In this document: one piece after another, positions 46,557 through 61,130 of the stretch
How the letters are laid out: each line of letters starts with the position of its first letter
Numbering within the stretch: the stretch's first letter is position 1
Virus record (IMG/VR): IMGVR_UViG_3300023110_002336
Span: 26,622-90,621 of that record
Source: a virus
Reading direction: 5' to 3' (one strand)
DNA: 64,000 nt
Program-made: the position numbers and the translations under genes
The notes under the pieces: generated by a model
The model's input: only the letters and a program-made list of their open reading frames with translations
Databases searched by the model: none
Told to the model about the DNA's origin: nothing

Positions 46557-47249
46557 CTAGTAAAATTCTTTGTCTAGTTTCTCGGCTGGAACCTTACGCC
46601 ACAGTGCGACAATTTGATTGTCTTGTTGGTTGCTCTGTGGGTAAATGAATCCTATACTATTATAACGTTCTTCGGCTAGGTTGGCAACCATTTCGTATGT
46701 GTTTGGCTTTAAATGATGGAACCTAGGATTATCAACCATGAGAGTGTCACCTGCATGACGCTCTTTTGTGTAGTAGAGCCCATCTGAATCTTCTGTCTTG
46801 GTACAGATGTGCCATTCATTGTAGCGCTCACTGACGGAACACTTTTCGGCTGTCTTCATCTTCTCAGCAAATTCTGGAATGTTTGCTTCCATCCAGTTCT
46901 GCTGTTCTTGCTTTGAGGATAAACCTGCTGGGTCATCCATGACTGGATAGAGTTGGTTTGGTCTCAGCCTAACACGATAGGGGACACCTTCAATTCTTCC
47001 AATGCCTGTGTCTTCTTGTCCGAGACGAGTAAAAAAGAAAACTCTTGGTCTATCCCAACTTCTGTATTCTTGCTGAGTGTAATTCTTAAGATTTCTTGCA
47101 GCAATGTCAGGGTCTAGTTCTTCAATGTCTTCTACACTAGAAACGTGATAAAGAATAATGTTACCCTCATCATCTTGTTCTAATGGAATCTCAGAAATAA
47201 AATTTTGTTCTGTCAAGAACCTTCTGAAGTTTTCAATTATTAATTTCAT
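46557..47249 (-). CDS. Tagged protein, possible ADP-ribosyltransferase-like fold
   Basis: A 230-residue protein from the ATG at 47249 with GGAG 8 bases upstream. It begins with the shared island tag MKLIIENFRRFLTE, which ends in L-T-E. The body has ILYHVSSVEDIEELDPDIAA (~33-52), then PRVFFFTR (~69-76) and VPYRVRLRPNQLYPV. The order LYHxS, FFFT, then a later strand is reminiscent of ART-type toxins and DarT/PARP-like cores, but the call is weak. It is inferred to be packaged and delivered to the host because of the tag. Confidence 0.6.
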   Translation of the reverse strand: MKLIIENFRRFLTEQNFISEIPLEQDDEGNIILYHVSSVEDIEELDPDIAARNLKNYTQQEYRSWDRPRVFFFTRLGQEDTGIGRIEGVPYRVRLRPNQLYPVMDDPAGLSSKQEQQNWMEANIPEFAEKMKTAEKCSVSERYNEWHICTKTEDSDGLYYTKERHAGDTLMVDNPRFHHLKPNTYEMVANLAEERYNSIGFIYPQSNQQDNQIVALWRKVPAEKLDKEFY

Positions 47250-47580
47250 CAAAGAACTCCTGCAAGTCGTACTCTCTAACTAGTTTATGCAGAGTTTCAT
47301 AGTCAGTTCCAAGAAACCTAGCAGCATCCATCTTAGAGTCAGTAGCACTGATAGCAAACTTTATGATTGCTTCTTTAACTAGTTTCTTTGTGTTTGACAA
47401 CAAGTTGAAAGCATAAAGTTTATTATTTATGTGTCTTGCTGAGAGTTCTAATTTAACAGCAATCAAATCTTCTAATGAAAGACTATCAATGAATGTTAAA
47501 TTACTTTCATTTATGATATTATTATTTAATAATTTATTAATAATACTTTTGTGTTTGTACTTTGATCTTCTCTTCTTCAT
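47233..47580 (-). CDS. Fis-like helix-turn-helix protein
   Basis: A 115-residue protein. The start is very basic (MKKRRSKYKHKS). Residues ~69-107 match the Fis-type DNA-binding helix bundle: KEAIIKFAISATDSKMDAARFLGTDYETLHKLVREYDL, read as a helix, the A-A-R-x-L-G turn and a recognition helix. It is likely a transcription regulator of phage or host genes. A sigma70-like promoter places +1 at about its ATG (47580), so the mRNA may be leaderless. Confidence 0.7.
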   Translation of the reverse strand: MKKRRSKYKHKSIINKLLNNNIINESNLTFIDSLSLEDLIAVKLELSARHINNKLYAFNLLSNTKKLVKEAIIKFAISATDSKMDAARFLGTDYETLHKLVREYDLQEFFDEINN

Positions 47581-47586
47581 AGATAG

Positions 47587-47614
47587 ATCATAACACAAGA
47601 TCGTCAGTTGTCAA
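47587..47614 (-). promoter_or_regulatory. Sigma70-like promoter for the Fis-like gene, probably leaderless
   Basis: Minus strand: TTGACA at 47614-47609, 16-base spacer, TATGAT at 47592-47587 preceded by TGT. Only 6 bases separate the -10 box from the ATG at 47580, so transcription would start at or next to the start codon. Confidence 0.65.
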
Positions 47615-48376
47615 TCAGATTTCTAGATCTAATTGTTCTCCACCGTCAACAGGCTGTTCTTGCTTAGCCGTGTCGTAGGCTTGGTTGGTAGGTTCTTCAA
47701 CATTAGGCTGGATCTCACCTTCAAACTTATCAAAGTAGAGTTTAAGGTTGGCAATTAGGTAGTCAAAGAAAATTTCTTGATCTTCGGGATTAGAGAGCAT
47801 GTCGTAAGCATCAATGATTTGAGATTCAATTTTCTTGAAAGTTGTATACGCCATGTTACGACCTGTGGTATCTTTACCTTCGATGCCGAAAGCGTCCCTT
47901 GGATCCTCTTCTTCTTCTTTTTCCTTGGGTTTTTCGGGATTGATGTCAATGAACATGTCATCTTCGCCCTCATCGTCGGAGATCTGAACATCAACTTCTT
48001 CATCAAGTTCGCCTTGTGGGGCGTCTTCTGGTGCATCGTTGTTGAGTTCAACAGGTGTAAGGGTCTGAACAGTAGCCTGAATGATGTGAGCGCGGTAAGA
48101 CTCACGCTGCTCTTCAGAAGTGGTGAGAAGCTTATAGTCATCTTCAATTTGTGGAACAATCTTCTTTAGAAGGTCTTCCAGCACATTGATTCCAGTAGAC
48201 TTGTGTGGTGCAGGATCATTGTCGGGAGTTGAAGCCTCTTTGAGTTCGTGCTTCAAAAATTCTCTAATGATCTGACGTAGTTGTGTTTCTTCAGAGACTT
48301 TATTCTTGTTTCTTTTCTTGACAAGAGAGATCAAATCTCTTACATTCTCTCTAAGCAAATCTTCTGGGGTCTTCAT
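47615..48376 (-). CDS. Acidic protein with internal KQIIKEEL-type motif
   Basis: A 253-residue, highly acidic protein. The N-terminal helix (PEDLLRENVRDLISLVKKR) is followed by TQLRQIIREFLKHELKEA (~32-49), the same kind of amphipathic motif that starts two other island proteins. The middle (~115-165) is a low-complexity acidic stretch (DEEVDVQISDDEGEDD, KEKEEEEDP). The C-terminal part is helical with aromatic residues. It could be a scaffold or a virion cargo adaptor; nothing shows enzymatic activity. It overlaps the next gene upstream by 4 bases (ATGA). Confidence 0.65.
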   Translation of the reverse strand: MKTPEDLLRENVRDLISLVKKRNKNKVSEETQLRQIIREFLKHELKEASTPDNDPAPHKSTGINVLEDLLKKIVPQIEDDYKLLTTSEEQRESYRAHIIQATVQTLTPVELNNDAPEDAPQGELDEEVDVQISDDEGEDDMFIDINPEKPKEKEEEEDPRDAFGIEGKDTTGRNMAYTTFKKIESQIIDAYDMLSNPEDQEIFFDYLIANLKLYFDKFEGEIQPNVEEPTNQAYDTAKQEQPVDGGEQLDLEI

Positions 48377-49152
48377 TTGACTAATCCTTCCTTCATAAGT
48401 AGTTTCAAGACTTCTTTGTATAAGTATAACTCATTGTACTCACTTTGTTTCTTCTTTCTTTTTCTCGCTCCAAGCGGCGCTCCGTATCCTTGGACGGCAC
48501 CACCAGCCATAGCAGACATCTCTTCGATCTGTGAGTCTAGACCAAGCACAGCCCTCACAGAATCAGTTCTGCCGTCTCCAAAAAACTCATCAGCGTTCTC
48601 GCCCTGCTCTAACATTTTACGAGCGTCAGTAGCGCTGAACGGCTCTCCAGAGGGTCTTTTGGCTGGGACGACGGCTGTCTCTTCTGGTGGTAGTAGGTTG
48701 ACGCCGGGTTTGATGTATTTTGCGGCAGTCTTCCAACGTTTGAAATCACCACCTTTCTGGCTAGCACCCAAGACGACGTTTGTTCCGGGCTCTAATGGAC
48801 CTTCTTCTCCGACAAACTCAAATGTGGCTTGGACAGGGGAAGGCTTAGGGGAAACCTCAAGTCTTACATTAGGTAACCCCGCATCGTCAAGGAGCATTTC
48901 CCAGATTTCCATAGACTGCCTAGCAGTGATTGGCTTACCGCCAACACCCCTGCTTGCCTTGAGAGGAGAAGAAATAAGAACAATCACCTCGTCTGCTTGT
49001 TGGGCATACTGGCGAACCATGTCCAAATGCCCCAAATGTGGTGGTTTGAAAGCACCGGGTACAATAGCGATAGTCCGACCCCCTACAGGATCGGAATCTT
49101 CGTCTTCTAACTCTAAAACGAGTTCTTCTATGCTGTTGTATAATTCAGACAT
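48373..49152 (-). CDS. Cytidylyltransferase/NMNAT-like nucleotidyltransferase
   Basis: A 259-residue protein with an HxGH nucleotidyltransferase domain at ~25-210: VPGAFKPPHLGHLDMV is the nucleotide site, and FSATDARKML (~177-186) takes the place of the ISS-T-x-x-R motif. The C-terminal ~60 residues form a tail: EEMSAMAGGAVQGYGA, a basic patch (RKRKKK) and a last helix LYLYKEVLKLLMKEGL, loosely like the other amphipathic motifs of the island. The substrate may be a nucleotide (NAD salvage) or a sugar phosphate. AGGAG lies 6 bases upstream. Confidence 0.82.
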   Translation of the reverse strand: MSELYNSIEELVLELEDEDSDPVGGRTIAIVPGAFKPPHLGHLDMVRQYAQQADEVIVLISSPLKASRGVGGKPITARQSMEIWEMLLDDAGLPNVRLEVSPKPSPVQATFEFVGEEGPLEPGTNVVLGASQKGGDFKRWKTAAKYIKPGVNLLPPEETAVVPAKRPSGEPFSATDARKMLEQGENADEFFGDGRTDSVRAVLGLDSQIEEMSAMAGGAVQGYGAPLGARKRKKKQSEYNELYLYKEVLKLLMKEGLVK

Positions 49153-49160
49153 TAGAACTC

Positions 49161-49406
49161 CTATAGATCGAGGTCTTCTTCCAGAATTGAAACCTTTTTG
49201 TTGAGAACTTCATTTGTGTGCTTCATTTCTCTCGCTTTGAGTTTTATCTCAGAGAGAACATCACAAATGGCTTGAAGCCTAGCCTCTTCACTTAGAGACT
49301 TAGGCTTTGCCTTTAACAACTTTAGTTCTTGTTGTGCTTCCTCGATAAGACTCTCAAGATCTTCTTTTCTTGGAACCCCGTCAAGGAAATCGCGCCACTT
49401 AGACAT
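49161..49406 (-). CDS. Small coiled-coil protein
   Basis: An 81-residue protein from the ATG at 49406; upstream GTG and ATG options exist. It starts MSKWRDFLDGVP, then is almost entirely helical with heptad spacing (LESLIEEAQQELKLLKAK, AICDVLSEIKLKAREMKH, NKKVSILEEDL). Its ATG overlaps the stop of the 52-residue gene just upstream, so translation is probably coupled. The KWRDFL start is loosely like the island tag, but lacks the rest. Function unknown. Confidence 0.6.
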   Translation of the reverse strand: MSKWRDFLDGVPRKEDLESLIEEAQQELKLLKAKPKSLSEEARLQAICDVLSEIKLKAREMKHTNEVLNKKVSILEEDLDL

Positions 49407-49557
49407 CTTCATTCTCACTTTGGGCTTGGTCTAATAAAAATCCTTGTGATTTCAAAAATTCTATCATTTCAGAATTAGAAATACCATTTTTATGAGAAAA
49501 ATGTGTTTTTTCTTGTTCTTTATTTTGAACTGGTATTTTCTTATATTCTTTTGACAT
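49399..49557 (-). CDS. Small protein of 52 residues, unknown function
   Basis: A short frame from ATG 49557 to TAA 49401-49399. Its start overlaps the stop of the metallopeptidase gene (TAATG), and its stop overlaps the ATG of the coiled-coil gene. The protein begins MSKEYKKIPVQNKEQEKTHF and ends in a helix (NSEMIEFLKSQGFLLDQ). The close packing supports a real gene. No domain is recognised. Confidence 0.55.
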   Translation of the reverse strand: MSKEYKKIPVQNKEQEKTHFSHKNGISNSEMIEFLKSQGFLLDQAQSENEDV

Positions 49558-50627
49558 TATCTAGACACTTTTTTATTCATAGCTTCTTTGACTAATTTGC
49601 GGATTAGGTTACGAATCTGTGCTTCGTCCATCTTTTCTTTCTTGTCTTGGTCCTTGCAAGGAACGTGATCGCACTTTTCGTCCTTGCCGTCGCCATCATC
49701 ATACTTACCTTTTTCTTCTGCCTCTTCCATCGGGCGAGCACGCTTCTGTGAAGAACGGCGGTCGTCATTCTGCTCGCGGTCAGCAGTCAATTCACGACCT
49801 GAAGAAGAAGCGCCTTCCTCGATCTCTTCTGATTCTGCGTAGAGACCCTGAGCCATCACGGCTGCATCTATGCACTTTTGGGAACCTTCTTCTGCTCCGC
49901 CGCGACGGCATTCTGGCGGCAAGAATCTTTCGTCGCCTTCCTCTTCAAGATGCTTGCGATAGTCCTTCTCACCGTAGTATCCCTTTATGGCGTCTTCATA
50001 ACGGTCACGATCCCGCGCCGTTTTTATCTTTTTCTTGGCGGCAGCCACACTATTCGGGAGATCTTCGTCGTCTCCGGTGCGTCCTTTGAAGACACCCTCT
50101 TCAACAGCTTCTTCCTCCTGAGACTCAGTAAGAAGATTAAATGAGAAACCCCATTTCTCTGTTAGGAGAGTTGGTAACTCTCTGTTTTTCCAATCTTTAA
50201 TAGACATGTCTTTTTTTGCTCCTTTCTGCAAAGATTCATTGTAAATAGTGCCCTTTATGCTATCTTCCCAATCACGAAAACACAAATTGCCTTTCTCGTA
50301 GGCTTGCCTCTCCATTTCGCGTAGGTGAGCGTCATTTTGGGCATAGCCCTCACCCATTTCACCTACGTCGTTGAACTGACCATTACAATTCTGTGTGTGA
50401 TGCACCAGTTCGTGAGATAGGGAACGCATAACGTCTTTCGGATGTCTCCCATTTATGTAAAGAGTGACCGACATCTTCTCTGGGTCATAGTAAGCGGTCT
50501 TGCCTAATGGATTCTGTGCGTTCTCGGGATCATCACGCAAAAACACACGCGGTGGCTTCTGAAAGCCCATTCGCTTCTGAGCGAACGGCATGAACTGATT
50601 GAACAGCGGCTGTAGAATGTCTTTCAT
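49557..50627 (-). CDS. HExxH metallopeptidase with C-terminal amphipathic motif
   Basis: A 356-residue protein. The zinc site is HELVHHTQ (72-79), and HLREMERQAYEKG (~101-113) provides an E-x-x-x-A third-ligand segment. The N-terminal 120 residues thus form a compact zincin. The rest is low-complexity and charged, with two L-L-T-E sites (~154-170: LPTLLTEKW, FNLLTES) that look like prohead-protease cleavage sites, and repeated acidic segments. The C-terminus carries AQIRNLIRKLVKEAMNKK, related to the KQIIKEEL motif. I infer a virion-processed protein. It overlaps the VOC gene by 4 bases. Confidence 0.78.
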   Translation of the reverse strand: MKDILQPLFNQFMPFAQKRMGFQKPPRVFLRDDPENAQNPLGKTAYYDPEKMSVTLYINGRHPKDVMRSLSHELVHHTQNCNGQFNDVGEMGEGYAQNDAHLREMERQAYEKGNLCFRDWEDSIKGTIYNESLQKGAKKDMSIKDWKNRELPTLLTEKWGFSFNLLTESQEEEAVEEGVFKGRTGDDEDLPNSVAAAKKKIKTARDRDRYEDAIKGYYGEKDYRKHLEEEGDERFLPPECRRGGAEEGSQKCIDAAVMAQGLYAESEEIEEGASSSGRELTADREQNDDRRSSQKRARPMEEAEEKGKYDDGDGKDEKCDHVPCKDQDKKEKMDEAQIRNLIRKLVKEAMNKKVSR

Positions 50628-50956
50628 TTGAGGAAGGTCTCACTTTGCTTTGGAGAATACCAAATATACTCTAAGTAGTTGCCAAATGGGTCTTTGACAT
50701 AGACGCCGACTGTGCCATCCCGATGATGAACTCTCACTCCATCTTCTGGAAGGTCATCGTATTCCTCCACCAGCACCCCAATGTGTTCATAGGGGTAGTA
50801 TTCTTCATTTATAAGGGCTATGTTGGTGTTTCCTACCTTTAGGCGAATGTATTTGTGGTCCTTGTAGGTAATTTCAGCACTAAGATGCCCCAAATACCAT
50901 GATTCTGCGATTTCTAGGTCGCTTACTTTGATTGCTATGTGGTCTATAATGTTCAT
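50624..50956 (-). CDS. Glyoxalase/bleomycin-resistance (VOC) family protein
   Basis: A 110-residue single VOC module: start IDHIAIKVSDLEIAESWYLGHL, mid strand YIRLKVGNTNIALIN, HIGVLVEEYDDL, and the closing block VYVKDPFGNYLEYIWY. The likely metal ligands are H6, H58 and the late E. VOC proteins open epoxides, isomerise or bind small molecules. A job in this phage is not apparent. It starts one base after the upstream stop. Confidence 0.85.
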   Translation of the reverse strand: MNIIDHIAIKVSDLEIAESWYLGHLSAEITYKDHKYIRLKVGNTNIALINEEYYPYEHIGVLVEEYDDLPEDGVRVHHRDGTVGVYVKDPFGNYLEYIWYSPKQSETFLK

Positions 50957-50957
50957 T

Positions 50958-51218
50958 TTATACCTCTTTTTCGTCTGCTGAAGACACTAGTTTTAGTGAA
51001 AAAGTGAACAATTCTACCGGTATTTTCGGCTCTTTCATGGGTAAAACGGTGGTTACACACACCATTCTATCAGAAAAAATGGTGTTTTTTACCTCTAAAA
51101 CGACTCCAAGGTGTTGAATCCAGTCAGAATTGTCAGAATTCCACTTAGACCAAGCAACAATGTCACCGATTTTGATGTTTTCAGCCGCTAACTCACCGAA
51201 ATTGTTCTTTTCTTCCAT
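50958..51218 (-). CDS. Small SH3/KOW-like protein
   Basis: An 86-residue protein from the ATG at 51218; a TTG at 51299 would add a non-matching 27 residues. ENIKIGDIVAWSKW, HLGVVLEVKN, MVCVTTVLPM and VELFTFSLKLV show the five-strand barrel pattern with the typical I-G-D-I-V opening. The ribosome site is weak. Same island family as the other small barrel proteins. Confidence 0.62.
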   Translation of the reverse strand: MEEKNNFGELAAENIKIGDIVAWSKWNSDNSDWIQHLGVVLEVKNTIFSDRMVCVTTVLPMKEPKIPVELFTFSLKLVSSADEKEV

Positions 51219-51253
51219 CTCACGAGAGTAAATAGCGCCCAAAGCGGTCTTTA

Positions 51254-51406
51254 TTAGACCAAATGTTGGGATTTGGACCAAAACTGTCCCAAAATACAAC
51301 CAATTCCTGTTATAACTGTAATTTCATAGCCAAAAAATGCATAAAATAGCCAAAAACAAACTACAGTCAATGTAATTTTTGGTATTTTGCCAAAAGTAAG
51401 CATCAT
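51254..51406 (-). CDS. Small membrane protein of 50 residues
   Basis: A frame from ATG 51406 to TAA at 51256-51254, one base after the stop of the upstream gene. The first ATG is followed directly by a second. Residues ~11-45 are strongly hydrophobic (ITLTVVCFWLFYAFFG, ITVITGIGCILG), enough for one or two membrane spans. It fills an otherwise empty 190-base gap. It could be a holin- or inhibitor-like peptide; only the membrane character is visible. Confidence 0.5.
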   Translation of the reverse strand: MMLTFGKIPKITLTVVCFWLFYAFFGYEITVITGIGCILGQFWSKSQHLV

Positions 51407-51407
51407 A

Positions 51408-51695
51408 TTAATTAAAACCTATCTCTTCTATGTCATCTGGGTGGATAGCAAGTAGATTGAAGCCATCATACACCAAGATTCTGTCTTTTTCATCCATTTC
51501 GTAACTGATTACATAGACTTGGATGCCTCTATTGACTTTCAGGAGTGTTTTCTTAGTCGGAGCCCATAGATAGAGGACACCAGTGCCCTTGATCATTGCG
51601 GGATTGACTAATTCCTTGGTTTTATCAATCTTTTTGCCAGTTATCTGGCGGATAACTTGCTCAACTCTATCAGCTTCAAGTTCATCCCACGCCAT
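51408..51695 (-). CDS. Small protein, unknown function
   Basis: A 95-residue protein from the ATG at 51695 (AGGTG 5 bases upstream). A helical N-terminus (AWDELEADRVEQVIRQITG) is followed by strands (GVLYLWAPTK, GIQVYVISYEM, RILVYDGFNLLAIHPDDIEEI). The C-terminal strands may form a barrel like its neighbours. It overlaps the upstream gene by 14 bases. No domain is recognised. Confidence 0.62.
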   Translation of the reverse strand: MAWDELEADRVEQVIRQITGKKIDKTKELVNPAMIKGTGVLYLWAPTKKTLLKVNRGIQVYVISYEMDEKDRILVYDGFNLLAIHPDDIEEIGFN

Positions 51696-51945: not shown

Positions 51946-51963
51946 AATGGCTCCTATGTAACT

Positions 51964-51991
51964 AAAATAACACGCTTTTTGTGATTGTCAA
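51964..51991 (-). promoter_or_regulatory. Sigma70-like promoter upstream of the small barrel-protein unit
   Basis: Minus strand: TTGACA at 51991-51986, 16-base spacer, TATTTT at 51969-51964 preceded by TGT. The -10 box is imperfect. It is located in a 53-base gap before the ATG at 51945. Confidence 0.5.
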
Positions 51992-52348: not shown

Positions 52349-53497
52349 TCAAGACTTGTAGTCACCGCCACGTTTCTGTCTTTTGCAGTATTGTTTTTGG
52401 CTAAAACCCTTTGGAGATGAGCAATTTATGCTTCTTTTATACTTTTGCGACCACTTCTTGGCTTCTTCGTCGATTGTTTCTTCGCCAATAAGGCGTTTTC
52501 TCTGATCTTTACACAAGAATTTACCGCTAAGAGGGATGATGTCCTTGTTCTGACGCCAGAAATCTTCCAATTCTACCGGGATGTGCCCACATTGATCACC
52601 AGTTACAGGATCTTTATTGCCTCTCGTGCTATCAAGAATCTTTAGATAGTAACGATAGACATCATTTTTGTCTTCTTCGGACAAACTAGCCTCAATCCAG
52701 TTGTAGAGGCTGTTGAAGTTACGCATTTCTTCAACCGAGATAGGTGTCCTATAGATTTTTTCAATCAGTTCTAGAGCCTCCTGCGGGCTTGAAACGACCT
52801 TTTCCTTTGTGCCCTTGCGATAGATTCCCTTCGCGTGCTGGAATGAGTAGTCTTTTACTCCGAGAAGAGATAAAATCAACTGAGTTCTGTGCAGACCCTT
52901 CAGCATTTCTTGATCTTTTGATGGAGCATCCGAGAAATAAGCAAAGGTAAGCCAATCTAAGTTACCAAGCATCCAGTCGATCTGGATTCCAACGTCTTGT
53001 TGCTCTCCAGAGTCCGAGATCTGAGGAAATAAAGAGAACATACTGTTTGATGTAATCTTCTTTAGATCTGTTTTGATCAATTGAGAGTTCTGGTCGATGT
53101 ATTTTGCTAGCTCTTGTAAGAACGCACGAAGATCTAACTCTTCATTTGTAGCATTCTTTGATCGTTTAGCAAACTTTTGTCTTGTCTCAGCCCAAGTTTG
53201 TGGGTCAAGATTCCAACTCTGCAACATAGCGTCATCAATCTTCTTGCTAGGCACTAATCTGGGCACATCTACGGCGAGGTCGATGTCGCCAGATCTAGCT
53301 TTCTTACCTACAGAACCAACTGGTTCAAAAGTTTGGAATAGTTCTGAGTGCTCTGGAAATAAGCGAGCAAGTTCTTCGTAGTAGTGCTCAAGCGTTGGCT
53401 GGATAAATTCCAGAGGAATAGGACCAACGGCTTCGCCTTTGAAGACATTTCCACCTTCATTGACGAACCTACGCCAGTTTTCCATCAAAAGTTTCAT
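52349..53497 (-). CDS. Tagged Pol-beta-superfamily nucleotidyltransferase
   Basis: A 382-residue protein that opens with the island tag MKLLMENWRRFVNE. The nucleotidyltransferase core shows EPVGSVGKKARSGDIDLAVD (58-77): G61-S62 with D71 and D73 as metal ligands, and D174 in GIQIDWMLG as the third. A helical part follows (~180-300). The C-terminal tail has INCSSPKGFSQKQYCKRQKRG, two cysteines in a basic segment. Such enzymes add nucleotides to RNA, proteins or small molecules. With the tag, delivery into the host cell is inferred. The start overlaps the upstream stop by one base. Confidence 0.78.
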   Translation of the reverse strand: MKLLMENWRRFVNEGGNVFKGEAVGPIPLEFIQPTLEHYYEELARLFPEHSELFQTFEPVGSVGKKARSGDIDLAVDVPRLVPSKKIDDAMLQSWNLDPQTWAETRQKFAKRSKNATNEELDLRAFLQELAKYIDQNSQLIKTDLKKITSNSMFSLFPQISDSGEQQDVGIQIDWMLGNLDWLTFAYFSDAPSKDQEMLKGLHRTQLILSLLGVKDYSFQHAKGIYRKGTKEKVVSSPQEALELIEKIYRTPISVEEMRNFNSLYNWIEASLSEEDKNDVYRYYLKILDSTRGNKDPVTGDQCGHIPVELEDFWRQNKDIIPLSGKFLCKDQRKRLIGEETIDEEAKKWSQKYKRSINCSSPKGFSQKQYCKRQKRGGDYKS

Positions 53498-54501
53498 CAG
53501 TTTAATTCTTCAGTGTCTTTCTTGAGGGTTTGTGCATTCTGACGTGCTCGCAATGCGGAGTCCTTAGCCTCTGGTGCTCCCAAGTAGTATTCATTAACGT
53601 TCTTTGATAAAAGGTCAAGTTGCTGATAGATTTCAACAAGAACAGAGCCAAGCCTCGCGGTGTATAATTCGGCTAGCTTTCTCATTTCTTCGCGAGAACC
53701 ACCAAGATTCAAATTACCAATGAAATATTTTGGCTTCATTATGTAAGCTATGCCTAGACCATTGCCAGTTTTGTTTTTAGCAGATGTTACAAATTTTTTA
53801 GCGCCCTTGGTTTTCTTTCCAAGATCTTTGGCTGTAAAGTTGCCACGTATACTACGGTGACCAACAGTAAATTGATAAAAATCTATACTCATAACATTGT
53901 TGCTTGAGTCTCTGTTCTTGATTGCTACGACATATGTCATTGGAACTTGGTATTGTTCTATACTAGCAACCAAATTATTGTAAGAAGCTGTCACATAAGC
54001 AGATGCTCCAGAAAAGAAAAACTTCAAACTCATTGGATTACCTTTATCATCAACAATATCAGTAACGTCTTGATTTCTTCCACCTATAGTCTCAATTTGT
54101 TCTGCATCTCCACCAAAGAGTGCTGCAAGCAGTGACTCAAATAAAAACCCGCCAGTTTTGTCATTGAAGTCGTAGATGACTGATGAAAGGGAATCTAGAA
54201 AAACGAGGTTTGCGAGAATTTCAGAAACATCTTTTTGGGCTGCACATCCTGCATCGCACTCAGCGACAAAAGAATTTAAAGATTCAATCTTTGCAGCAAG
54301 AGAATCGCCAGCAATCTTAGAGGTAAACATCTCAATGATTTTTCTGTCGTCACTGCCGGGTGTTCCCCACTGTTCAGAAATTCTGAACTTGGGTAGACGA
54401 AGAACCATTTCTTCCCCACCACCTGCGGCAATATCAACTGCTCGCGTTGGCATTTCTTCTGCAATTAGGAATTTATTCCAATGTTCAAATAACTCTTTCA
54501 T
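53497..54501 (-). CDS. Tagged protein with PD-(D/E)XK-nuclease-like motif
   Basis: A 334-residue protein starting MKELFEHWNKFLIAEE, a variant of the island tag. Residues 117-162 read GGFLFESLLAALFGGD, NQDVTDIVDD and MSLKFFFS, giving the pattern E122...D145/D148...K160 of restriction-endonuclease-like folds. The remaining part is mixed helix and strand (TYVVAIKNRDSSNN, IDFYQFTVG). The nuclease call is an inference from these residues and was not confirmed by structure. The ATG lies in a TGA overlap with a frame that extends the kinase gene. Confidence 0.62.
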   Translation of the reverse strand: MKELFEHWNKFLIAEEMPTRAVDIAAGGGEEMVLRLPKFRISEQWGTPGSDDRKIIEMFTSKIAGDSLAAKIESLNSFVAECDAGCAAQKDVSEILANLVFLDSLSSVIYDFNDKTGGFLFESLLAALFGGDAEQIETIGGRNQDVTDIVDDKGNPMSLKFFFSGASAYVTASYNNLVASIEQYQVPMTYVVAIKNRDSSNNVMSIDFYQFTVGHRSIRGNFTAKDLGKKTKGAKKFVTSAKNKTGNGLGIAYIMKPKYFIGNLNLGGSREEMRKLAELYTARLGSVLVEIYQQLDLLSKNVNEYYLGAPEAKDSALRARQNAQTLKKDTEELN

Positions 54502-54572: not shown

Positions 54573-55721
54573 TCATGTGTTGAATCTTCCGAGATCAACA
54601 ATAACAATATCATTCGTGCCGGGACGCATCATAACGTTACCAGCGTGAACATCAAAAGGTCTAAACTCGCGGTCAGCAAACCTTTTCATCGCATCGCGGA
54701 CAAACATAATCTCTGGGAACTCTTGTTCTAGTTCGTCTTCTTGCCCGTAGAACTGGTCCATACCACGGAGAGCGGAGTCTTGTGATAATTCTCGTCCTTC
54801 TGCTCCAGAAACCAGAGGCTTTTGATATGCTTTTTCAAAACCAATAATTAGTGATTCTTTCATGTGTTGCTTATATTGTTCTATTACTTCTCTGTGTGCT
54901 TCACTTCTAGCATGATTTAGCATCTCTTTGTAACTTATTTGAACGTAGAGCATCATGAGCTTCTTACCTAAGTCGCTCATCGCCATTCTTCTTATGTAAG
55001 GATCGGGACGCACAGCAGGTATAGTGCCTGAGAAGAATTGTTCCATAATTTTTTTCTCTGCGGCTTCTTGTGCTTTCACGGTTAGATAATTACCTTGTTC
55101 TCCCATCAAACTCCAAGCAATATTCAAAAGCGAAGAGACGAGCTTGGGATTCTTGAGAAGTCGCTTGTCTCTAATTTCTCTTGCTCTTTTGTTTCTGTCT
55201 GAGTTGCCAAGAGCAGCAAACATTGATCTGGCAACATCTGTCGGTAATGGCTCTAGTTGTTCCATAACAATAAAGCCATGTTTCTTCTTTGTGCCGTCTG
55301 CACCTTCACCTTCAACTGGAATGTCTTCCATTGAGGCTTCATAGACGACGGGTAGATACTTCTTGTAGGCTCTAAAAGAATTGTAGTTATCTTTCACAAA
55401 CTTGTAGTTTTTTACCTCTCTCTCGGCAGAAGCACCACCACCTTGGTCAGCATCGATAGTCTTGATGGCCACAGTCTGACCAGTTTTCTTGTTTGTTGCT
55501 TTATAAACCTTGCCGTCCATACCAGAACCCAGTAGTTTATCTAGATAGTAGCCCTTCTCTGATAGGAAAAGTTTCAAGCCTGTAAGGGCACGGCGCTCGG
55601 GTTGTGGATCTGGTTTTGTTGGCTCATCGTTAAGAGCAAATGTAGGCTCTGCATCTCTGACTGTAGGACCAGCGAGTGGATTTTGCTCTAGCAAGAATTG
55701 ATTCCAAAATTTATTATACAT
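54573..55721 (-). CDS. Tagged Ser/Thr-kinase-like protein
   Basis: A 382-residue protein kinase-like enzyme that starts MYNKFWNQFLLEQ, the most divergent island tag. The glycine loop is LGSGMDGKVYKA (64-75), the ATP lysine is in VAIK (K87), and the helix glutamate follows in AEREV. The catalytic loop is FDVHAGN (D357, N362) and the metal site DLG (D376). The end comes only four residues after DLG, which is unusual; a 24-codon in-frame extension lies after the stop. It would phosphorylate host proteins after delivery. The start overlaps the upstream stop (TAATG). Confidence 0.8.
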   Translation of the reverse strand: MYNKFWNQFLLEQNPLAGPTVRDAEPTFALNDEPTKPDPQPERRALTGLKLFLSEKGYYLDKLLGSGMDGKVYKATNKKTGQTVAIKTIDADQGGGASAEREVKNYKFVKDNYNSFRAYKKYLPVVYEASMEDIPVEGEGADGTKKKHGFIVMEQLEPLPTDVARSMFAALGNSDRNKRAREIRDKRLLKNPKLVSSLLNIAWSLMGEQGNYLTVKAQEAAEKKIMEQFFSGTIPAVRPDPYIRRMAMSDLGKKLMMLYVQISYKEMLNHARSEAHREVIEQYKQHMKESLIIGFEKAYQKPLVSGAEGRELSQDSALRGMDQFYGQEDELEQEFPEIMFVRDAMKRFADREFRPFDVHAGNVMMRPGTNDIVIVDLGRFNT

Positions 55722-55888: not shown

Positions 55889-55917
55889 TCGTGAGCCCTC
55901 TACCAATAAGTAGAGTG

Positions 55918-56148
55918 TTAGTCGTCTATGTTTGAGATAATGTCAATTTCAGAAGGCTGTAGCCACCTCTTTGAGTTTGTCCTAAACATAAATACTTCTA
56001 TAAATAAAGCACTCTCTGGTTTTTTAGGAACCCCTGTTACGATTCCAACATCTCCTGCCTTATTTAGAACATCTATTTGAGAGAGCTTTCTAATTCTTAC
56101 TAGGTCTCCGGGTTTGTGCGCGAAATACCAATCTGACTTTCCATCCAT
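55918..56148 (-). CDS. Small SH3/KOW-like protein
   Basis: A 76-residue protein with GGAGG 7 bases before the ATG. HKPGDLVRIRKLS, KAGDVGIVTGVPKK, LFIEVFMFRTN and WLQPSEIDII show the complete KOW-like barrel: G-D-L-V start, G-x-V/I-x-G turn, and a closing helix-strand. It overlaps the next upstream gene by 49 bases. Confidence 0.7.
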   Translation of the reverse strand: MDGKSDWYFAHKPGDLVRIRKLSQIDVLNKAGDVGIVTGVPKKPESALFIEVFMFRTNSKRWLQPSEIDIISNIDD

Positions 56149-56558
56149 GCGACAGCCTCCTCTCTAGTCTCAAGCTTATCAGATAGACACCCGATAAACC
56201 TGTGTGTTCCTCCTTCGGCAACACACCAAGCCCATTTCCATTCTGTGTCCTCGTTACACATAAGACAAGTAATGGAAGAACTCTGACTTAGAGCAGGGAA
56301 CTCCTGCGCTACGAGTTTTGATAGAAGGTTGTTCCTCTTCTTGGCGAACATGTCTTCTTTCTCGTTTCTGATCTCGGCTGCTCGCTCCTGCGGTGCGTCT
56401 TCGGGAATGACGACCCACTCTGCGTTTTGGAACTTCTTGTCTAGTGTAGGCAGAACGTCCGAGAAGAAAAATTCTTTTTTATCTGCCTCAAATGTTGTGA
56501 TTGGGGTCTTTGCCCTCTTGCCATTTTTGAAAATTTTATAAGCATTCCAGTTACTCAC
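56100..56558 (-). CDS. Protein with CxxC motif, unknown function
   Basis: A 152-residue protein that starts at a GTG with AGGAGG 5 bases upstream. It has a basic N-terminus, a middle helical charged part, and cysteines in SITCLMCNEDTEWKWAWCVAEGG (~95-118), which could bind zinc. The C-terminal end is a helix (REEAVAWMESQIG). The stop of the upstream gene overlaps this start by 8 bases. Not recognised. Confidence 0.6.
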   Translation of the reverse strand: MSNWNAYKIFKNGKRAKTPITTFEADKKEFFFSDVLPTLDKKFQNAEWVVIPEDAPQERAAEIRNEKEDMFAKKRNNLLSKLVAQEFPALSQSSSITCLMCNEDTEWKWAWCVAEGGTHRFIGCLSDKLETREEAVAWMESQIGISRTNPET

Positions 56559-56829
56559 TCGTGCCTCCTGCTTTGTGAATTTGGATTGTTCCTACAATGA
56601 TAGACATTTTTAGCCCTTCTTCTTCCATGAATGGAATGTTATTGAAATGATTGAACTTTTCTGTTTGGTGAAACCAAGTGATTTTCCAAACATAGATGTC
56701 ATCGTGGGCGATGTCTATTCTTCTCTCACGCTCAGACAGGAACCCTTTGGAGCCTGTGCTAACGTCTATTATCATATCTCCTACAGATAATGTAACACAC
56801 TGCGACAAATCTCGCAAGTCATTCATCAT
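56551..56829 (-). CDS. Small barrel-like protein, paralog of the next gene upstream
   Basis: A 92-residue protein. LSVGDMIIDVSTGSKGFLSERERRIDI, DDIYVWKITWFH and NIPFMEEEGL match the adjacent upstream gene almost block by block (G-x-L/M...D...GFL-x-ER, IWVWD/IYVWK-x-W, IPF-x-EE). The pair is therefore a tandem duplication. It starts at one of two adjacent ATG codons and overlaps the upstream stop by 11 bases. Confidence 0.66.
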   Translation of the reverse strand: MMNDLRDLSQCVTLSVGDMIIDVSTGSKGFLSERERRIDIAHDDIYVWKITWFHQTEKFNHFNNIPFMEEEGLKMSIIVGTIQIHKAGGTSE

Positions 56830-57073
56830 CTTTCTCTACTATGTTCCATTCTCCTGCGTTGAGAAGCGAAAGCAGAGCCTCTTCTATGAATGGGATCATA
56901 CAGTTTTCAAAGTCAGTCGTTGGTCCAGCCCAATACATGTCCCAGACCCAAATCTCTTCGTGCTCCCAGCCTTTCATTATGTCGAATCTTTCAACCAAGA
57001 ATCCTAAATCATTTGTAACTGGATCCTTGACTAACAAGCCGGGTTTTAGGTCATTTTTCCTGTAGTACCTCAT
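56819..57073 (-). CDS. Small barrel-like protein, tandem paralog
   Basis: An 84-residue protein from the ATG at 57073; a longer start within the previous gene is not needed. DLKPGLLVKDPVTNDLGFLVERFDI, EEIWVWDMYWAG and CMIPFIEEALLSLL define it, and it is a clear relative of the gene just downstream. The SH3-like character is inferred from the strand pattern. Confidence 0.64.
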   Translation of the reverse strand: MRYYRKNDLKPGLLVKDPVTNDLGFLVERFDIMKGWEHEEIWVWDMYWAGPTTDFENCMIPFIEEALLSLLNAGEWNIVEKDDE

Positions 57074-57350
57074 GCTTATAACTAGCTTGCTCTTCGTTGA
57101 TGAGTAGCCAGTTTTCATGGGACTTGATGCAGGCAGCAGCAAATTCGCGCATTTTCTCACTATCGATCTCGGAAGTAGCCTTTAACACGCACACGCTACC
57201 GGGCATGTAAATAGCTTTTCCTGTTGTAGCAATACTTTCAACCTTGACGCGCTCAACTTCGCTGCCAATAACATTCAGCTTGTGATGTAGTGAGAATGCA
57301 GTAGCACAGCCACTTAGCATAAACAAACCAATAATAAATTCGTTTTTCAT
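57051..57350 (-). CDS. Small putative lipoprotein
   Basis: A 99-residue protein. The start MKNEFIIGLFMLSGCATAF has a hydrophobic core and a lipobox-like L-S-G-C (cleavage before C15). The rest is a soluble domain with two further cysteines. AGGAG lies 6 bases before the ATG. Its location would be the membrane of the infected cell; a lysis (spanin-like) or exclusion role is possible but unproven. Confidence 0.62.
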   Translation of the reverse strand: MKNEFIIGLFMLSGCATAFSLHHKLNVIGSEVERVKVESIATTGKAIYMPGSVCVLKATSEIDSEKMREFAAACIKSHENWLLINEEQASYKHEVLQEK

Positions 57351-57358
57351 GTTGTCTC

Positions 57359-57544
57359 CTATTCTACTGGTTCAACTAGATTAATAGACAGCCTCCCTGA
57401 CCTTCTTACCCTGATCCAGTAGACCTCGACATAATTGTCATCGAGAATTTTTAAAACCAATCCCAAGTCTCCAACTACAATTCCAAAAGAGTGTAGCCAA
57501 ATAGGATAGATTGAATTTAGCCTAACTAGATCGCCTACATTCAT
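57359..57544 (-). CDS. Small SH3/KOW-like protein
   Basis: A 61-residue protein, the shortest and clearest of the family: NVGDLVRLN, SFGIVVGDLGLVLKIL, YVEVYWIRVRRSGRLSINLVEPV. The G-D-L-V start, G-x-V turn and closing strand fit a single barrel. It starts within a 4-base ATGA overlap with the upstream stop. Confidence 0.7.
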   Translation of the reverse strand: MNVGDLVRLNSIYPIWLHSFGIVVGDLGLVLKILDDNYVEVYWIRVRRSGRLSINLVEPVE

Positions 57545-57756
57545 AAAACCTTGTATTGACCATTGTTTTTTTTAGTAAACCACCTTTCTTCGGCATTGTC
57601 AAAGCACAATACTTTCATGAATTTAGTTTTATGATCAACGTCTATAACTAGTGCCAATAACTTACGAGGATAGTCTTTGCAGTTGTAGTAAATCCAATCT
57701 CCCTCTTTGGCTTGCGGAAACTGGGCTGACCAAGGGTCGTCTTTTGGGTCTGTCAT
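57541..57756 (-). CDS. Small barrel-like protein with probable leaderless start
   Basis: A 71-residue protein. After MTDPKDDPWSAQFPQ come strands KEGDWIYYNCKD, KLLALVIDVDHKTKFMKVLCFDN and ERWFTKKNNGQYKVL. There is no ribosome site because a promoter -10 box lies only 6 bases before the ATG. It probably has a leaderless mRNA. Function unknown. Confidence 0.64.
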   Translation of the reverse strand: MTDPKDDPWSAQFPQAKEGDWIYYNCKDYPRKLLALVIDVDHKTKFMKVLCFDNAEERWFTKKNNGQYKVL

Positions 57757-57762
57757 GTAGAT

Positions 57763-57791
57763 AATATAACGCTAGAGCTTGATCCTGTCAA
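57763..57791 (-). promoter_or_regulatory. Sigma70-like promoter, probably for a leaderless mRNA
   Basis: Minus strand: TTGACA at 57791-57786, 17-base spacer, TATATT at 57768-57763. Six bases follow before the ATG at 57756-57754, so +1 falls at the start codon. The -35 box lies inside the end of the 625-residue gene. Confidence 0.68.
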
Positions 57792-59649
57792 TGATGTAGG
57801 GGTGTTCTAGTGACAAGTCCTTGTAAAGCTTCTTCATGATTTTCTTGACGACATCGGCAACTTGCTCTTTGGTGTCCTTCGCCTTTAGCTGCTTCTGGAC
57901 CTCTTTCTCAATCATCTTCTTGATTTCTGACTTGTCCTCGGAGGATAGTTTCTCAACGATCAACTTAACACGACGAGCGCGATGCTCCGTGAAGTAGTCC
58001 TTGGAAGCAGTAGCCTGCGGGTCGAAGCGACCGAGAATGTAATCGACTGCCTTTTGCTTTGAGAAATCATCAGAGAGGTAAAGCATAATGGAGTCGTAAA
58101 GGTTGTTGAACTTACCAGTAGGCATCTGGATTACGTTGTTCATAACCCACCAAGTGGCCAAATCAGAGTATTTTGGATCTTGATAAGGTTTCATTTCCTT
58201 TGGCTTGGGAGCAGGCTTTGGTCCTCTTGGTTTCTTTGGACCTTTTACCTTTGGCTCTTTGGGTGGAGTTGGGAAATAGTCAAACATTGCACCCTTCTTG
58301 CCGCGAGAGGTAATAGAACGAACGCCTTGTCCCTTCTCAAGAACATAACGACCAGCTTCTTCAAAGCCTTGTCCGTCAATAGTCGAAAGAATTGTTCCAA
58401 GCCAGTCTTGCTCTTCAAGTTGCTTGAGGGTTGCTAGATCGTCCTTGATTGTAGCAACGTTTGTGATAGCATCTCTAATCTGGTTGTAAGCAAACTGAGT
58501 TGTAACACCCAAGCCAGCCTCGCCAGTCTGCTTAATCTGAGAAGCAACCCAGATAAGAGCCTGCAACTCGTGTGGTAGAAGACCTAGCTTCTTTGCTTCG
58601 GAAGCAACGAGACGAGCCATATAGCGATAGGAAACGACGTTACCCATCATCTTACCCTTGATAGTCTCCCACTCTTTCGATGTGGACGCCTTTCTCAAAG
58701 AGGGGTAAAAAGCATCAATCATCCAAGTGTCGATTGTAGAGTTCCACTCGTACATATCGTCATAAGACATCTCACCACCTTCGCTACGCTTACCTGCGAG
58801 TTCAGGTGCAATTAGATTGAGAGTGAAGTTGGGAACCTTGTGTGCGTTTGTGAAGCCTCTGGATTCACCGGGGGCTCTTTTCTCTGCACCGGGGAAAGTC
58901 TCAAGGTATTCTTTTAGTTCCGGACCCTTGCCATCAGCAACATCCTTCTGGATAGCCTTGAACATAAAGACGGCTTCAGCAAGATTGAGAGCAAACTTTG
59001 CTCTTGGAGAGTAAGTTGCAATTAGAAGACCAAGTAGGGTTGCATCTTTGTCGTTCCCTGTCTCTTTATCAAGGAGACCACGGATGTTATGATACCAATC
59101 CCTCGCTTCTTCAAAAAGACCATCGACCTCTTTGGTGTCTTCAACAAGCTGTCTAAATGATTCGAGAACCTCGTCAGGAACAGGAATAACGATGTCTGCC
59201 TCTTCAAAGTCTCCAGCAGACATAGTACCGAGACCTTTCTCAAGACCTCTAACTGCTTTTGGACCTCTCTTGGCTACATCGCCTTCTGAGCCATAGTATT
59301 GACGACGAAGAGCCAACTGCTCGGGAGTAGCAGCACGTAACTGCGCTACGGTAATACCAAGCGCCTCTGCTTCTGCCTTTTCCTCTTCTGTTGCGTCATC
59401 GACCTCTTCGGCAACCATACGCATTTCTGGCTCTGCGAAAGAGCCGTCTAGCTGAGGAATTTCACCTTCTGCTCCAAGAACCTTCTTAGCAGTTCCAACG
59501 ATCTTGGCGATTGAATCGTTTACTTGATCTAATTCTGATGCGGTAAAAGTGTAGTCTTTAGACCCGCTCTTCTTTTGAGAGCCGGGAAAAGGAATTACTT
59601 GAGCATCTTCAGTTACATACTTTCGCCAGTTTTCAAATAAAAGCTTCAT
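57772..59649 (-). CDS. Tagged 625-residue protein, unknown enzyme or structural role
   Basis: It starts with the island tag MKLLFENWRKYVTED. Residues ~95-130 are charged helices. The segment WYHNIRGLLDKETGNDKDATLLGLLIATYSPRAKFALNLAEAVFMFKA (~190-240) and later WMIDAFYPSL and ELQALIWVASQIKQTGEAGLG (~355-380) form a helical core that I do not recognise. A Pro/Lys-rich linker lies at ~462-490 (KEPKVKGPKKPRGPKP), followed by a helical C-terminus ending in SLEHPYIIDRIKL. No catalytic motif is evident. It is the largest of the tagged proteins. Confidence 0.7.
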   Translation of the reverse strand: MKLLFENWRKYVTEDAQVIPFPGSQKKSGSKDYTFTASELDQVNDSIAKIVGTAKKVLGAEGEIPQLDGSFAEPEMRMVAEEVDDATEEEKAEAEALGITVAQLRAATPEQLALRRQYYGSEGDVAKRGPKAVRGLEKGLGTMSAGDFEEADIVIPVPDEVLESFRQLVEDTKEVDGLFEEARDWYHNIRGLLDKETGNDKDATLLGLLIATYSPRAKFALNLAEAVFMFKAIQKDVADGKGPELKEYLETFPGAEKRAPGESRGFTNAHKVPNFTLNLIAPELAGKRSEGGEMSYDDMYEWNSTIDTWMIDAFYPSLRKASTSKEWETIKGKMMGNVVSYRYMARLVASEAKKLGLLPHELQALIWVASQIKQTGEAGLGVTTQFAYNQIRDAITNVATIKDDLATLKQLEEQDWLGTILSTIDGQGFEEAGRYVLEKGQGVRSITSRGKKGAMFDYFPTPPKEPKVKGPKKPRGPKPAPKPKEMKPYQDPKYSDLATWWVMNNVIQMPTGKFNNLYDSIMLYLSDDFSKQKAVDYILGRFDPQATASKDYFTEHRARRVKLIVEKLSSEDKSEIKKMIEKEVQKQLKAKDTKEQVADVVKKIMKKLYKDLSLEHPYIIDRIKL

Positions 59650-59873
59650 CGCTTACACTCGCCCTCTTTGGTGCTCTTGATTGCATCATCACCAATGTCG
59701 TGCTTCTTCTTGATCTTTCTCTCGGCAACACCACCAGCATCAGCGTAAACACGCTCGTGGTGCATCTCGCCGTCTTTCTCGAAGCCAACACACCAAGCCT
59801 TCTCAACGCCCTCTAGGACATTCTCAAGCTCTTCCTTGATAATCTGCTTTAGTCTTGCTCTAGTAATCGTCAT
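59646..59873 (-). CDS. Small protein with N-terminal RLKQIIKEEL motif
   Basis: A 75-residue protein from the ATG at 59873; the in-frame ATG at 59885 would add four residues. It starts MTITRARLKQIIKEELENVLE, almost the same as the start of the gene at 63.4-63.7 kb. A short domain follows (AWCVGFEKDGEMHHERVYAD and a basic helix). Its stop overlaps the start of the 625-residue gene by 4 bases. Function unknown. Confidence 0.62.
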   Translation of the reverse strand: MTITRARLKQIIKEELENVLEGVEKAWCVGFEKDGEMHHERVYADAGGVAERKIKKKHDIGDDAIKSTKEGECKR

Positions 59874-60420
59874 AGTAGTAATCATCCTCTTCGTAACTAA
59901 GTAGATCGGTCGCTAACTGAATGTCTGTTGCTTTGGGTGCGAGAGTCCAAGCACGACCATCTGGATACGCACCATAAATAGCATCGTAGGGAGTTCCTTC
60001 CAACTCGTAATCGGTGAAGAACTCAACCTCTTTTGGAACTTGGTTCATCGGAATGCGGACTAGCAGCAGGTTCTCGTTGATGCCCTTTTCTTTGTCTTCA
60101 TCAGAAAAGTCACCAACAATTGCTTCCAACTCTTGCGTGTCGGACATCATAGCAGCCTTAGCGTCATCGCCAGAACCAAAAAAATAAATCCTATGCTCTG
60201 GGTTGCCATCAGAATTTAGATAGGGCTGTGAGTCATCTGCGGACCTATCACGGGACCTTATGACCTTAGTTCCCTTCCGGAAGCGTTCGTAGTTGTCGCC
60301 CTTGTCTCCATAGCGCTTGGAGATGCGGTAAAGGTCTCTGCCTACATCGTCAATAGTTCCGATGTATTCGCCTTGTTCTTCGGTCAAGAACTTGCGCCAG
60401 TTTTCAATAATCAGTTCCAT
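59860..60420 (-). CDS. Tagged protein, possible ADP-ribosyltransferase-like fold
   Basis: A 186-residue protein beginning with the tag MELIIENWRKFLTEEQ (GGAG 8 bases upstream). The body has DLYRISKRYG (~29-38), HRIYFFGSGDDAKAAM (~76-91), NLLLVRIP and VEFFTDYELEGTPYDAIYGAY. The order Y-R-I-S, then a Y-F-F strand with a helix, then acidic strands is similar to the other tagged protein at 46.6-47.2 kb and resembles ART-type folds. The C-terminus is very acidic and Tyr-rich (SYEEDDYYYDDY). The call is tentative. Confidence 0.6.
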   Translation of the reverse strand: MELIIENWRKFLTEEQGEYIGTIDDVGRDLYRISKRYGDKGDNYERFRKGTKVIRSRDRSADDSQPYLNSDGNPEHRIYFFGSGDDAKAAMMSDTQELEAIVGDFSDEDKEKGINENLLLVRIPMNQVPKEVEFFTDYELEGTPYDAIYGAYPDGRAWTLAPKATDIQLATDLLSYEEDDYYYDDY

Positions 60421-61130
60421 CTCTTTTCTCCAGTCATATCTGAGAACACAGAAGCATCGAGAACCTTTAGAGTGTGGTCTTTCATATCTACGCCAACATT
60501 ACCTTCAGCAATATCACCACCCTCTACGCCATATCTCTTCATAGCCTTTGATAGTTGTCTAAACCAAGGCTCGTTGGCCAAACCAAATTCTTGGATCTGT
60601 CGGAATATGCTTGTAGTCTGATTATCTGCATAATTCAAAGGACGAGCAGCAACAGTTATGAAGCGAAGGATCTCGAAAGGCTCTATATCGTCTTCTACAA
60701 AGTTCGCTTGTTCCGAGAGCAACTTAACAACAAATTCATAAAGCTTGGGCATAGTAGCAACAAAGGCTTCCTCAAGCATCTCTCTGTTTCTAACTGAGAT
60801 GGGAGTAACCCTATCAGCCACAATCCAGTGATAGTCGGGCGAGTGTGCATAAACCCTAGGGAACACATCGGGGTATTCATCACCAAGTATCTTCTCGATC
60901 TTGTTCATAAAAGAGTCTGATTCGCCATAGCGAATAATTTTTACAACATAGTCCGGGTCTTCATCAGGGATGATAGTAGTTCTAAACGAACCAGAGCCAC
61001 CAAAGCCGCCTTTTCCGTGTTGGTCTTGGATGAACTTAGTTGGATTGGAATAAAGATCCTCAATCCAAGGAAAGTAGGTGCTTTGATCTTCGGTGAGGAA
61101 TCGCTTCCAGTTTTCAATAATAAGTTTCAT
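60411..61130 (-). CDS. Tagged kinase-like protein (compact)
   Basis: A 239-residue protein from the ATG at 61130. The tag is MKLIIENWKRFLTEDQ. The glycine loop is GGFGGSGSF (41-49), the ATP lysine is in YVVKII (K64), WIVADRV follows as a hinge, and the catalytic loop is GDIAEGN (D206, N211) with the metal site in VLDAS (D225). Like the larger kinase-like protein, it ends soon after the metal motif. The start overlaps the upstream stop by one base (TAATG). It probably acts on host targets. Confidence 0.76.
   Translation of the reverse strand: MKLIIENWKRFLTEDQSTYFPWIEDLYSNPTKFIQDQHGKGGFGGSGSFRTTIIPDEDPDYVVKIIRYGESDSFMNKIEKILGDEYPDVFPRVYAHSPDYHWIVADRVTPISVRNREMLEEAFVATMPKLYEFVVKLLSEQANFVEDDIEPFEILRFITVAARPLNYADNQTTSIFRQIQEFGLANEPWFRQLSKAMKRYGVEGGDIAEGNVGVDMKDHTLKVLDASVFSDMTGEKRWN

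What the first reader, a model, noticed from the sequence alone, without database searches (positions are those of the whole stretch)
46557..61130. Seven unrelated proteins share one N-terminal tag: a possible capsid-targeted, injected enzyme set
Seven genes start with the same ~14-residue pattern: MKLIIENFRRFLTE (46557-47249), MKLLMENWRRFVNE (52349-53497), MKELFEHWNKFLIAE (53497-54501), MYNKFWNQFLLEQ (54573-55721), MKLLFENWRKYVTE (57772-59649), MELIIENWRKFLTE (59860-60420), MKLIIENWKRFLTE (60411-61130). The bodies behind the tag are different: two kinase-like proteins, a Pol-beta-type nucleotidyltransferase, a nuclease-like protein, two possible ART-like proteins and one unknown. In T4, internal proteins and Alt carry a ~10-residue capsid-targeting sequence that the prohead protease gp21 cuts after L/I-x-E. 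The tag here has the same place and length, and most copies end in L/V-x-E. I infer that these proteins are packed in the head and injected with the DNA to act on the host.
Basis: partly seen in the sequence, partly recalled or inferred. Interest (0 to 1): 0.88.

Follow-up and report, generated by a model that had tools for sequence, protein, structure and literature searches.

The report
Shared head-packing tag on phage enzymes
A large T4-like virus of bacteria puts the same 14-residue, probably cut-off address label on at least eight unrelated proteins, most likely so that they are packed inside the virus head and delivered with its DNA at infection; related viruses carry the same label on well over a hundred other protein families.

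Summary
All seven ORFs exist at the stated coordinates with the stated N-termini; an eighth (MKLIMESWRGYLKE) lies in the same 90.6-kb record outside the window. In related phage contigs the leader M-K-L-[LI]-[FM]-E-N-W-R-K-[YF]-[LIV]-x-E precedes 174 unrelated body clusters. Conservation stops right after E14, which is E in 138/174 when only residues 1-8 are used to find the set (background 9%). The best reading is a lineage-specific form of the T4 capsid-targeting sequence: its last seven residues match T4 IPIII's targeting/processing positions, and a profile trained on the tags alone picks IPII/IPIII first among 58 T4 N-termini and the known gp23 cleavage site (E65) first within gp23. A gp21-family (S77) protease occurs in 15 of 15 tag-bearing records of 150 kb or more. 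Homologous bodies occur untagged or with other leaders, one beginning exactly after E14. Packaging, cleavage and injection are inferred; no virion was analysed. Two bodies are kinase-like and one has a nucleotidyltransferase motif; nuclease and ART calls are unconfirmed.

The parts
47208..47249 (-). type-1 leader MKLIIENFRRFLTE
   Evidence: orthologs at 79-89% identity keep it
46557..47207 (-). body 1, 216 aa, function unknown (reader: ART-like); conserved ILYHVS motif
   Evidence: no Pfam/PHROG/NCBIfam/PDB match; AF2 model too poor to use
53456..53497 (-). type-1 leader MKLLMENWRRFVNE
52349..53455 (-). body 2, Pol-beta-type nucleotidyltransferase-like (GSVG..SGDIDLA motif); homology starts at GGNVF directly after E14
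   Evidence: no library match
54457..54501 (-). leader variant MKELFEHWNKFLIAE
   Evidence: ortholog L231 has MNLLFENWNKFLSE
53497..54456 (-). body 3, possible PD-(D/E)XK-like nuclease; also occurs untagged
   Evidence: Foldseek not significant
55686..55721 (-). short leader variant MYNKFWNQFLLE
   Evidence: ortholog in G028 MYQKFWNQFLVE
54573..55685 (-). body 4, protein-kinase-like; homologs in other phages carry the canonical tag
   Evidence: PF00069 E=1.7e-5, below the curated cutoff; PHROG kinase 6e-7
59608..59649 (-). type-1 leader MKLLFENWRKYVTE
57772..59607 (-). body 5, 611 aa, weak DUF7178 match; residues about 560-625 are a separate module found elsewhere on small ORFs
60379..60420 (-). 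type-1 leader MELIIENWRKFLTE (first six residues resemble T4 Alt MELITE)
59860..60378 (-). body 6, 172 aa, unknown (reader: ART-like); G028 homolog at 73% is tagged
61089..61130 (-). type-1 leader MKLIIENWKRFLTE
60411..61088 (-). body 7, 225 aa, divergent kinase-like
   Evidence: PHROG kinase E=1e-4
59646..59885 (-). small ORF with the second-kind leader MTITRARLKQIIKEELENVLE, between two tagged genes

Best explanation
The 14-residue leader is a lineage-specific capsid-targeting sequence (CTS) of the T4 type. Inferred mechanism: during late infection the leader's amphipathic helix (aromatic W8 and Y/F11 as the main contacts) docks the protein on the prohead core built by the gp22-like scaffold; the shell closes around the core; the S77 prohead protease then cuts after [LIV]-x-E14, and possibly first after [LI]-x-E6, as T4 Alt is cut at ITE-6. 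The leader leaves the head and the mature enzyme stays with the packaged DNA and is ejected into the next host. Shown here: the tag, its exact boundary, its reuse on unrelated bodies, body homologs that lack it (one starting right after E14), the presence of protease, scaffold-like and gp23-like genes in relatives, and the match to T4 CTS and gp21 sites. Inferred: docking, cleavage, packaging, ejection and action on the host.
For: Boundary: per-column information falls from 1.4-5.9 bits in the tag to 0.1-0.4 by the second residue after E14; E14 in 138/174 body clusters with no constraint placed on it. T4 match: same spacing aromatic-x-x-aromatic-[LI]-x-E as IPIII Y4, F7, I8, E10, where positions 4/7 govern targeting and 8/10 processing (PMC9026906). 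The tag-trained profile ranks IPIII and IPII (identical tags) 1-2 of 58 T4 N-termini and gp23 FGSFLTE-65 as best of all sites in gp23; gp23 loses a 65-residue propeptide and gp21 cuts at L/I-X-E (PMC9026906). Protease PF03420 over cutoff in 15/15 tag-bearing records of 150 kb or more, in the portal-protease-scaffold-MCP gene neighbourhood. Relatives' protease carries LLTE near its N-terminus and LLNE near its C-terminus, the MCPs carry [LI][LIV]xE. Modularity: the same nucleotidyltransferase body begins M-GGNVF in phage immuto, MRFAELLE-GGNVF in L101 and MKLLMENWRRFVNE-GGNVF here. Tagged genes turn over while the backbone is conserved.
Against: No virion proteomics and no cleavage or packaging assay. 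The record ends inside the portal gene, so this phage's own protease, scaffold and MCP were not seen. T4 IPI and Alt do not match the 7-column profile (ranks 20 and 50 of 58), and internal T4 stretches reach the IPIII score in 5 of 272 cases, so the T4 match rests on IPII/IPIII, the gp23 site and residue spacing. The tag is four residues longer than the T4 CTS.
Confidence: 0.85

Rival explanations
1. The tag puts proteins into the prohead core only as assembly helpers or filler; they are structural or morphogenetic and do not act in the host.
For: Tag-like leaders also occur on genes at the portal-protease-scaffold position (G028 148102-148560 MSKKMKVIMESWDKFVLQE; G001 170064 FHDSWKNYLVE).
Against: Many tagged bodies look like enzymes rather than core proteins (Nudix, HD, kinase, GNAT, HAD, NT5C, ClpP, transglutaminase) and their set turns over between close relatives.
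Confidence: 0.1
2. The leader addresses proteins to another place (membrane, tail, replication compartment) and the likeness to the T4 CTS is convergence.
For: A short amphipathic N-terminal helix with basic and aromatic residues could bind a membrane or another partner; the target was not tested.
Against: The [LIV]-x-E end, sharp boundary, a homolog starting after E14 and consistent presence of the S77 protease are all explained by a cut leader and not by a retained anchor.
Confidence: 0.06
3. It is a translation-start or other DNA/RNA-level element, or a recently duplicated 5' end, rather than a functional peptide.
For: It always lies at the start codon.
Against: Upstream DNA is not conserved (0.27 identity), synonymous codons differ within a genome in 36% of comparisons, and residue classes ([LIV], [FY]) are kept rather than bases.
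Confidence: 0.02

Closest known systems
T4 capsid-targeting sequence of internal proteins IPII/IPIII (MKTYQEFIAE)
   Same: N-terminal, short, shared by otherwise unrelated proteins; same spacing aromatic-x-x-aromatic-[LI]-x-E; in T4 it targets to the prohead core and is cut by gp21 (PMC9026906, PMC3012670)
   Different: 14 rather than 10 residues, with an extra conserved KLL(F/M)EN block; on many enzyme-like bodies and many more families than the three T4 IPs; function untested
T4 Alt propeptide (MELITE-6, plus LTE-619 at the C-terminus)
   Same: Six-residue start M[EK]L[IL]xE with E6 conserved, as in MELIIE of window 59860-60420; in T4 it sits on an injected enzyme (PMC5694885)
   Different: Conservation here runs on to E14; Alt has no W..FL.E part and no ADP-ribosyltransferase body was confirmed here
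Propeptides of phiKZ-like giant phage head and ejection proteins (phiKZ, SPN3US, 201phi2-1)
   Same: Head proteins trimmed after x-x-E by a T4 gp21-related protease (PMC5694885, PMC9026906)
   Different: Those propeptides are usually much longer and cut at S/A/G-X-E or A-X-E; here the tag is short and ends [LIV]-x-E

Membership tests
T4-type capsid-targeting sequence | N-terminal leader of about 10-19 residues shared by otherwise unrelated proteins | tested here: met
   14 residues, 174 body clusters, boundary at E14
T4-type capsid-targeting sequence | ends in the gp21 cleavage motif L/I-X-E | tested here: met
   [LIVMA]-x-E at positions 12-14 in 137/174 clusters
T4-type capsid-targeting sequence | aromatic targeting positions equivalent to IPIII residues 4 and 7 | tested here: met
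   W8 in most copies (92/96) and F/Y11 in 154/174 clusters at the same spacing; IPII/IPIII rank 1-2 of 58 T4 N-termini
T4-type capsid-targeting sequence | phage encodes a gp21-family (Peptidase_S77) prohead protease | tested here: met
   met in relatives including syntenic G028 and nearest-portal contig L005; not visible in this record, which ends in the portal gene
T4-type capsid-targeting sequence | body is a separable module that can occur without the leader | tested here: met
   nucleotidyltransferase body starts M-GGNVF in immuto; nuclease-like body without the tag in L232/L233
T4-type capsid-targeting sequence | protein is packaged in the head and the leader is removed | not testable with these tools
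   needs virion mass spectrometry
T4 Alt-type ADP-ribosyltransferase (bodies 46557 and 59860) | recognisable ART family or fold | tested here: inconclusive
   no Pfam, PHROG or NCBIfam match for either; for 46557 also no PDB-sequence match and AF2 mean pLDDT 36
Protein-kinase fold (54573, 60411) | kinase family match | tested here: met
   PHROG kinase 6e-7 and 1e-4; Pfam Pkinase 1.7e-5 for 54573, below its curated cutoff
PD-(D/E)XK nuclease (53497) | nuclease fold match | tested here: inconclusive
   D..SLK-like motif; Foldseek hits include HincII and DpnI but none is significant

The most novel reading that the evidence does not exclude
One uncultured T4-like phage clade runs a general delivery system: a short two-site leader ([LI]-x-E6 and [LIV]-x-E14) that has been put on well over a hundred unrelated proteins (kinases, Nudix, HD, GNAT, HAD, ClpP, transglutaminase, nucleotidyltransferase), so that each virion arrives with a swappable set of pre-made enzymes to disarm or reprogram the host before any phage gene is expressed.
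Probability: 0.65. Interest if true: 0.86.

Novelty: new variant of a known kind. Interest (0 to 1): 0.74.

Why it matters
In T4 the set of CTS-tagged proteins is small and, apart from Alt, not known for enzymes. Here a tag readable from sequence alone predicts, across an uncultured group of large T4-like phages, which proteins are packed and injected. Most of these are unknown accessory genes, and they are candidates for counter-defence and host takeover. The list can be checked directly by virion proteomics, and the tag-protease pair could serve as a packaging tool outside T4.

Tried and rejected
AlphaFold2 on body 46557 was too poor to use. The body 53497 model was moderate and Foldseek gave no significant match. 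PDB sequence searches for bodies 1, 2 and 7 found nothing meaningful. A scan of bacterial and archaeal genome contigs for the tag found nothing, so there is no host clue. T4-type late promoters (TATAAATA) are almost absent, so expression timing could not be inferred. I considered that the tag copies the MCP's own LLxKW propeptide segment; spacing differs by one residue and the profile score there is near zero, so I dropped it. A C-terminal PKGFSQ module of body 2 was followed but is not widely shared. The idea that all bodies are one fast-evolving family was rejected by 174 clusters and several distinct Pfam families. A search of open-access papers for the tag sequences found none. Microcystis phage Mel-JY01, a distant isolate, has a prohead protease but shows no clear tag-like leader by the profile.

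Full report
What was checked. The window is bases 26,622-90,621 of a 90,621-base IMG/VR phage record. Nearly all genes lie on the minus strand. The seven ORFs exist at the stated coordinates with the stated N-termini. An eighth tagged ORF, MKLIMESWRGYLKE (208 aa; best PHROG match phrog_2859 of unknown function, E=2e-16, with a weaker ParB-like match), lies near the terminase at record position 6,226-6,852. The record ends inside a T4 gp20-like portal gene, so protease, scaffold and major capsid genes are cut off.

Is it more than chance? Yes. In 9,784 distinct ORFs of the window and related loci the full motif occurs 156 times at a start Met, 4 times a few residues further in, never elsewhere and never in reversed proteins. 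In the two records G000 and G028, 17 of 383 ORF starts pass a 7-column profile against 2 of 1,357 internal Met positions. Copies within the record share residues but not upstream DNA (0.27 identity) and often not codons, so selection acts on the peptide.

How wide is it? Related contigs were fetched by portal, by four of the tagged bodies and by two degenerate tag patterns. The pattern scans select for the tag, so totals are not frequencies. With only residues 1-8 as the seed there are 369 distinct ORFs in 174 body clusters. Position 14 is E in 138 of 174 (background 9%), and 137 of these have [LIVMA]-x-E. The two pattern scans did require an E codon at position 14, so the cleaner version of this test is the comparison made before the second scan (131 of 168), which still includes the first scan; contigs fetched only by portal or body show the same end. 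On one representative per cluster in the first set, information falls to background within two residues after E14. A 90-sequence alignment gives the consensus MKLLFENWRKYLxE followed by nothing. Whole relatives carry several copies each; the nearest whole relative, G028 (191 kb), has nine in 262 genes.

Match to T4. IPII and IPIII begin MKTYQEFIAE and Alt begins MELITELFDE. IPIII residues 4 and 7 govern targeting and 8 and 10 processing, and gp21 cuts at L/I-X-E (PMC9026906). These positions line up with W8, Y/F11, L12 and E14 of the tag at identical spacing. A profile of the last seven tag columns, trained without T4, ranks IPIII and IPII first among 58 T4 N-termini, and its best site in gp23 is FGSFLTE ending at residue 65, the end of the 65-residue gp23 propeptide (PMC9026906). 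IPI and Alt are not found by it. Alt is instead cut at ITE-6 (PMC5694885); the tag has a matching [LIVM]-x-E6 in 90 of 94 representatives, so it may hold two cut sites.

Protease and head genes. Peptidase_S77 (T4 gp21 family, PF03420) is present over cutoff in all 15 tag-bearing records of 150 kb or more that were searched, and in most shorter ones. It lies a few genes after the portal, with a gp22-like acidic protein and a gp23-type capsid protein further on. L005, whose portal is 95% identical, carries it too. The proteases themselves have LLTE near the N-terminus and LLNE near the C-terminus, the motif that ends the tags.

Modularity. The nucleotidyltransferase body starts M-GGNVF in Flavobacterium phage immuto, MRFAELLE-GGNVF in L101 and MKLLMENWRRFVNE-GGNVF here, so homology begins exactly at residue 15. 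Homologs of the kinase 54573 carry the canonical tag in other phages. The nuclease-like body has the tag in L231 but another start in L232/L233. Between G000 and G028 many backbone genes are 75-95% identical while tagged genes are replaced, missing or only 33-82% alike.

What are the bodies? 54573 and 60411 are kinase-like. 52349 has a GSVG..SGDIDLA nucleotidyltransferase motif. 53497 may be a PD-(D/E)XK nuclease but this is not established. 57772 has a weak DUF7178 match. 46557 and 59860 have no match, and the ART idea remains open. Across representatives Pfam finds Nudix, HD, kinase, GNAT, HAD, NT5C, ClpP, DnaJ, transglutaminase and others, each family in one member.

Judgement. The leader works like a T4 capsid-targeting sequence and meets every sequence-level criterion that could be tested. 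Packaging, cleavage and ejection remain inferred. The principle is known from T-even phages, whose diverse internal proteins share a CTS (PMC3012670). The consensus, the two-site layout, the enzyme-like cargo and the scale appear undescribed in the papers searched.

Noticed in passing
window 59646-59885, 63426-63713; L002 3991-4608, 7054-7575, 7572-8147, 12635-13603: A second recurring N-terminal leader, MK[IL]TKxxLKQIIKEE[LI]ExVLxE, on many unrelated small proteins of the same phages (283 ORFs, 211 body-distinct with a loose seed); it often also ends in [LIV]-x-E and may be another core-directed leader.
   Followed up: partly
L242:1803-2318; L238:13807-14355, 27632-28633, 28633-28932: The cultured Flavobacterium phage immuto has its own shared leader, MENFDLKKFLVENKLTxNSxLLxE or close variants, on four proteins, suggesting that each T4-like lineage has its own version.
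   Followed up: partly
window 57772-57970 (C-terminal about 65 residues of the 625-aa protein): C-terminal module also found on small separate ORFs in L094, L095, L096 and L117, some with second-kind leaders; in G028 only this part of the protein remains.
   Followed up: no
G028 148102-148560 (L252); G001 170064-170957 (L121/L122): Genes between portal and protease, or just after the protease, begin with tag-like leaders (MSKKMKVIMESWDKFVLQE; FHDSWKNYLVE), at the place of the T4 core genes.
   Followed up: no
window 49161-49418: Weak tag-like start MRMKMSKWRDFLDG without the final E; probably not functional or a decayed copy.
   Followed up: no
window 24506-38237: Long block of sugar-epimerase, glycosyltransferase and methyltransferase-like genes on the minus strand, judged by eye from the ORF starts.
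   Followed up: no
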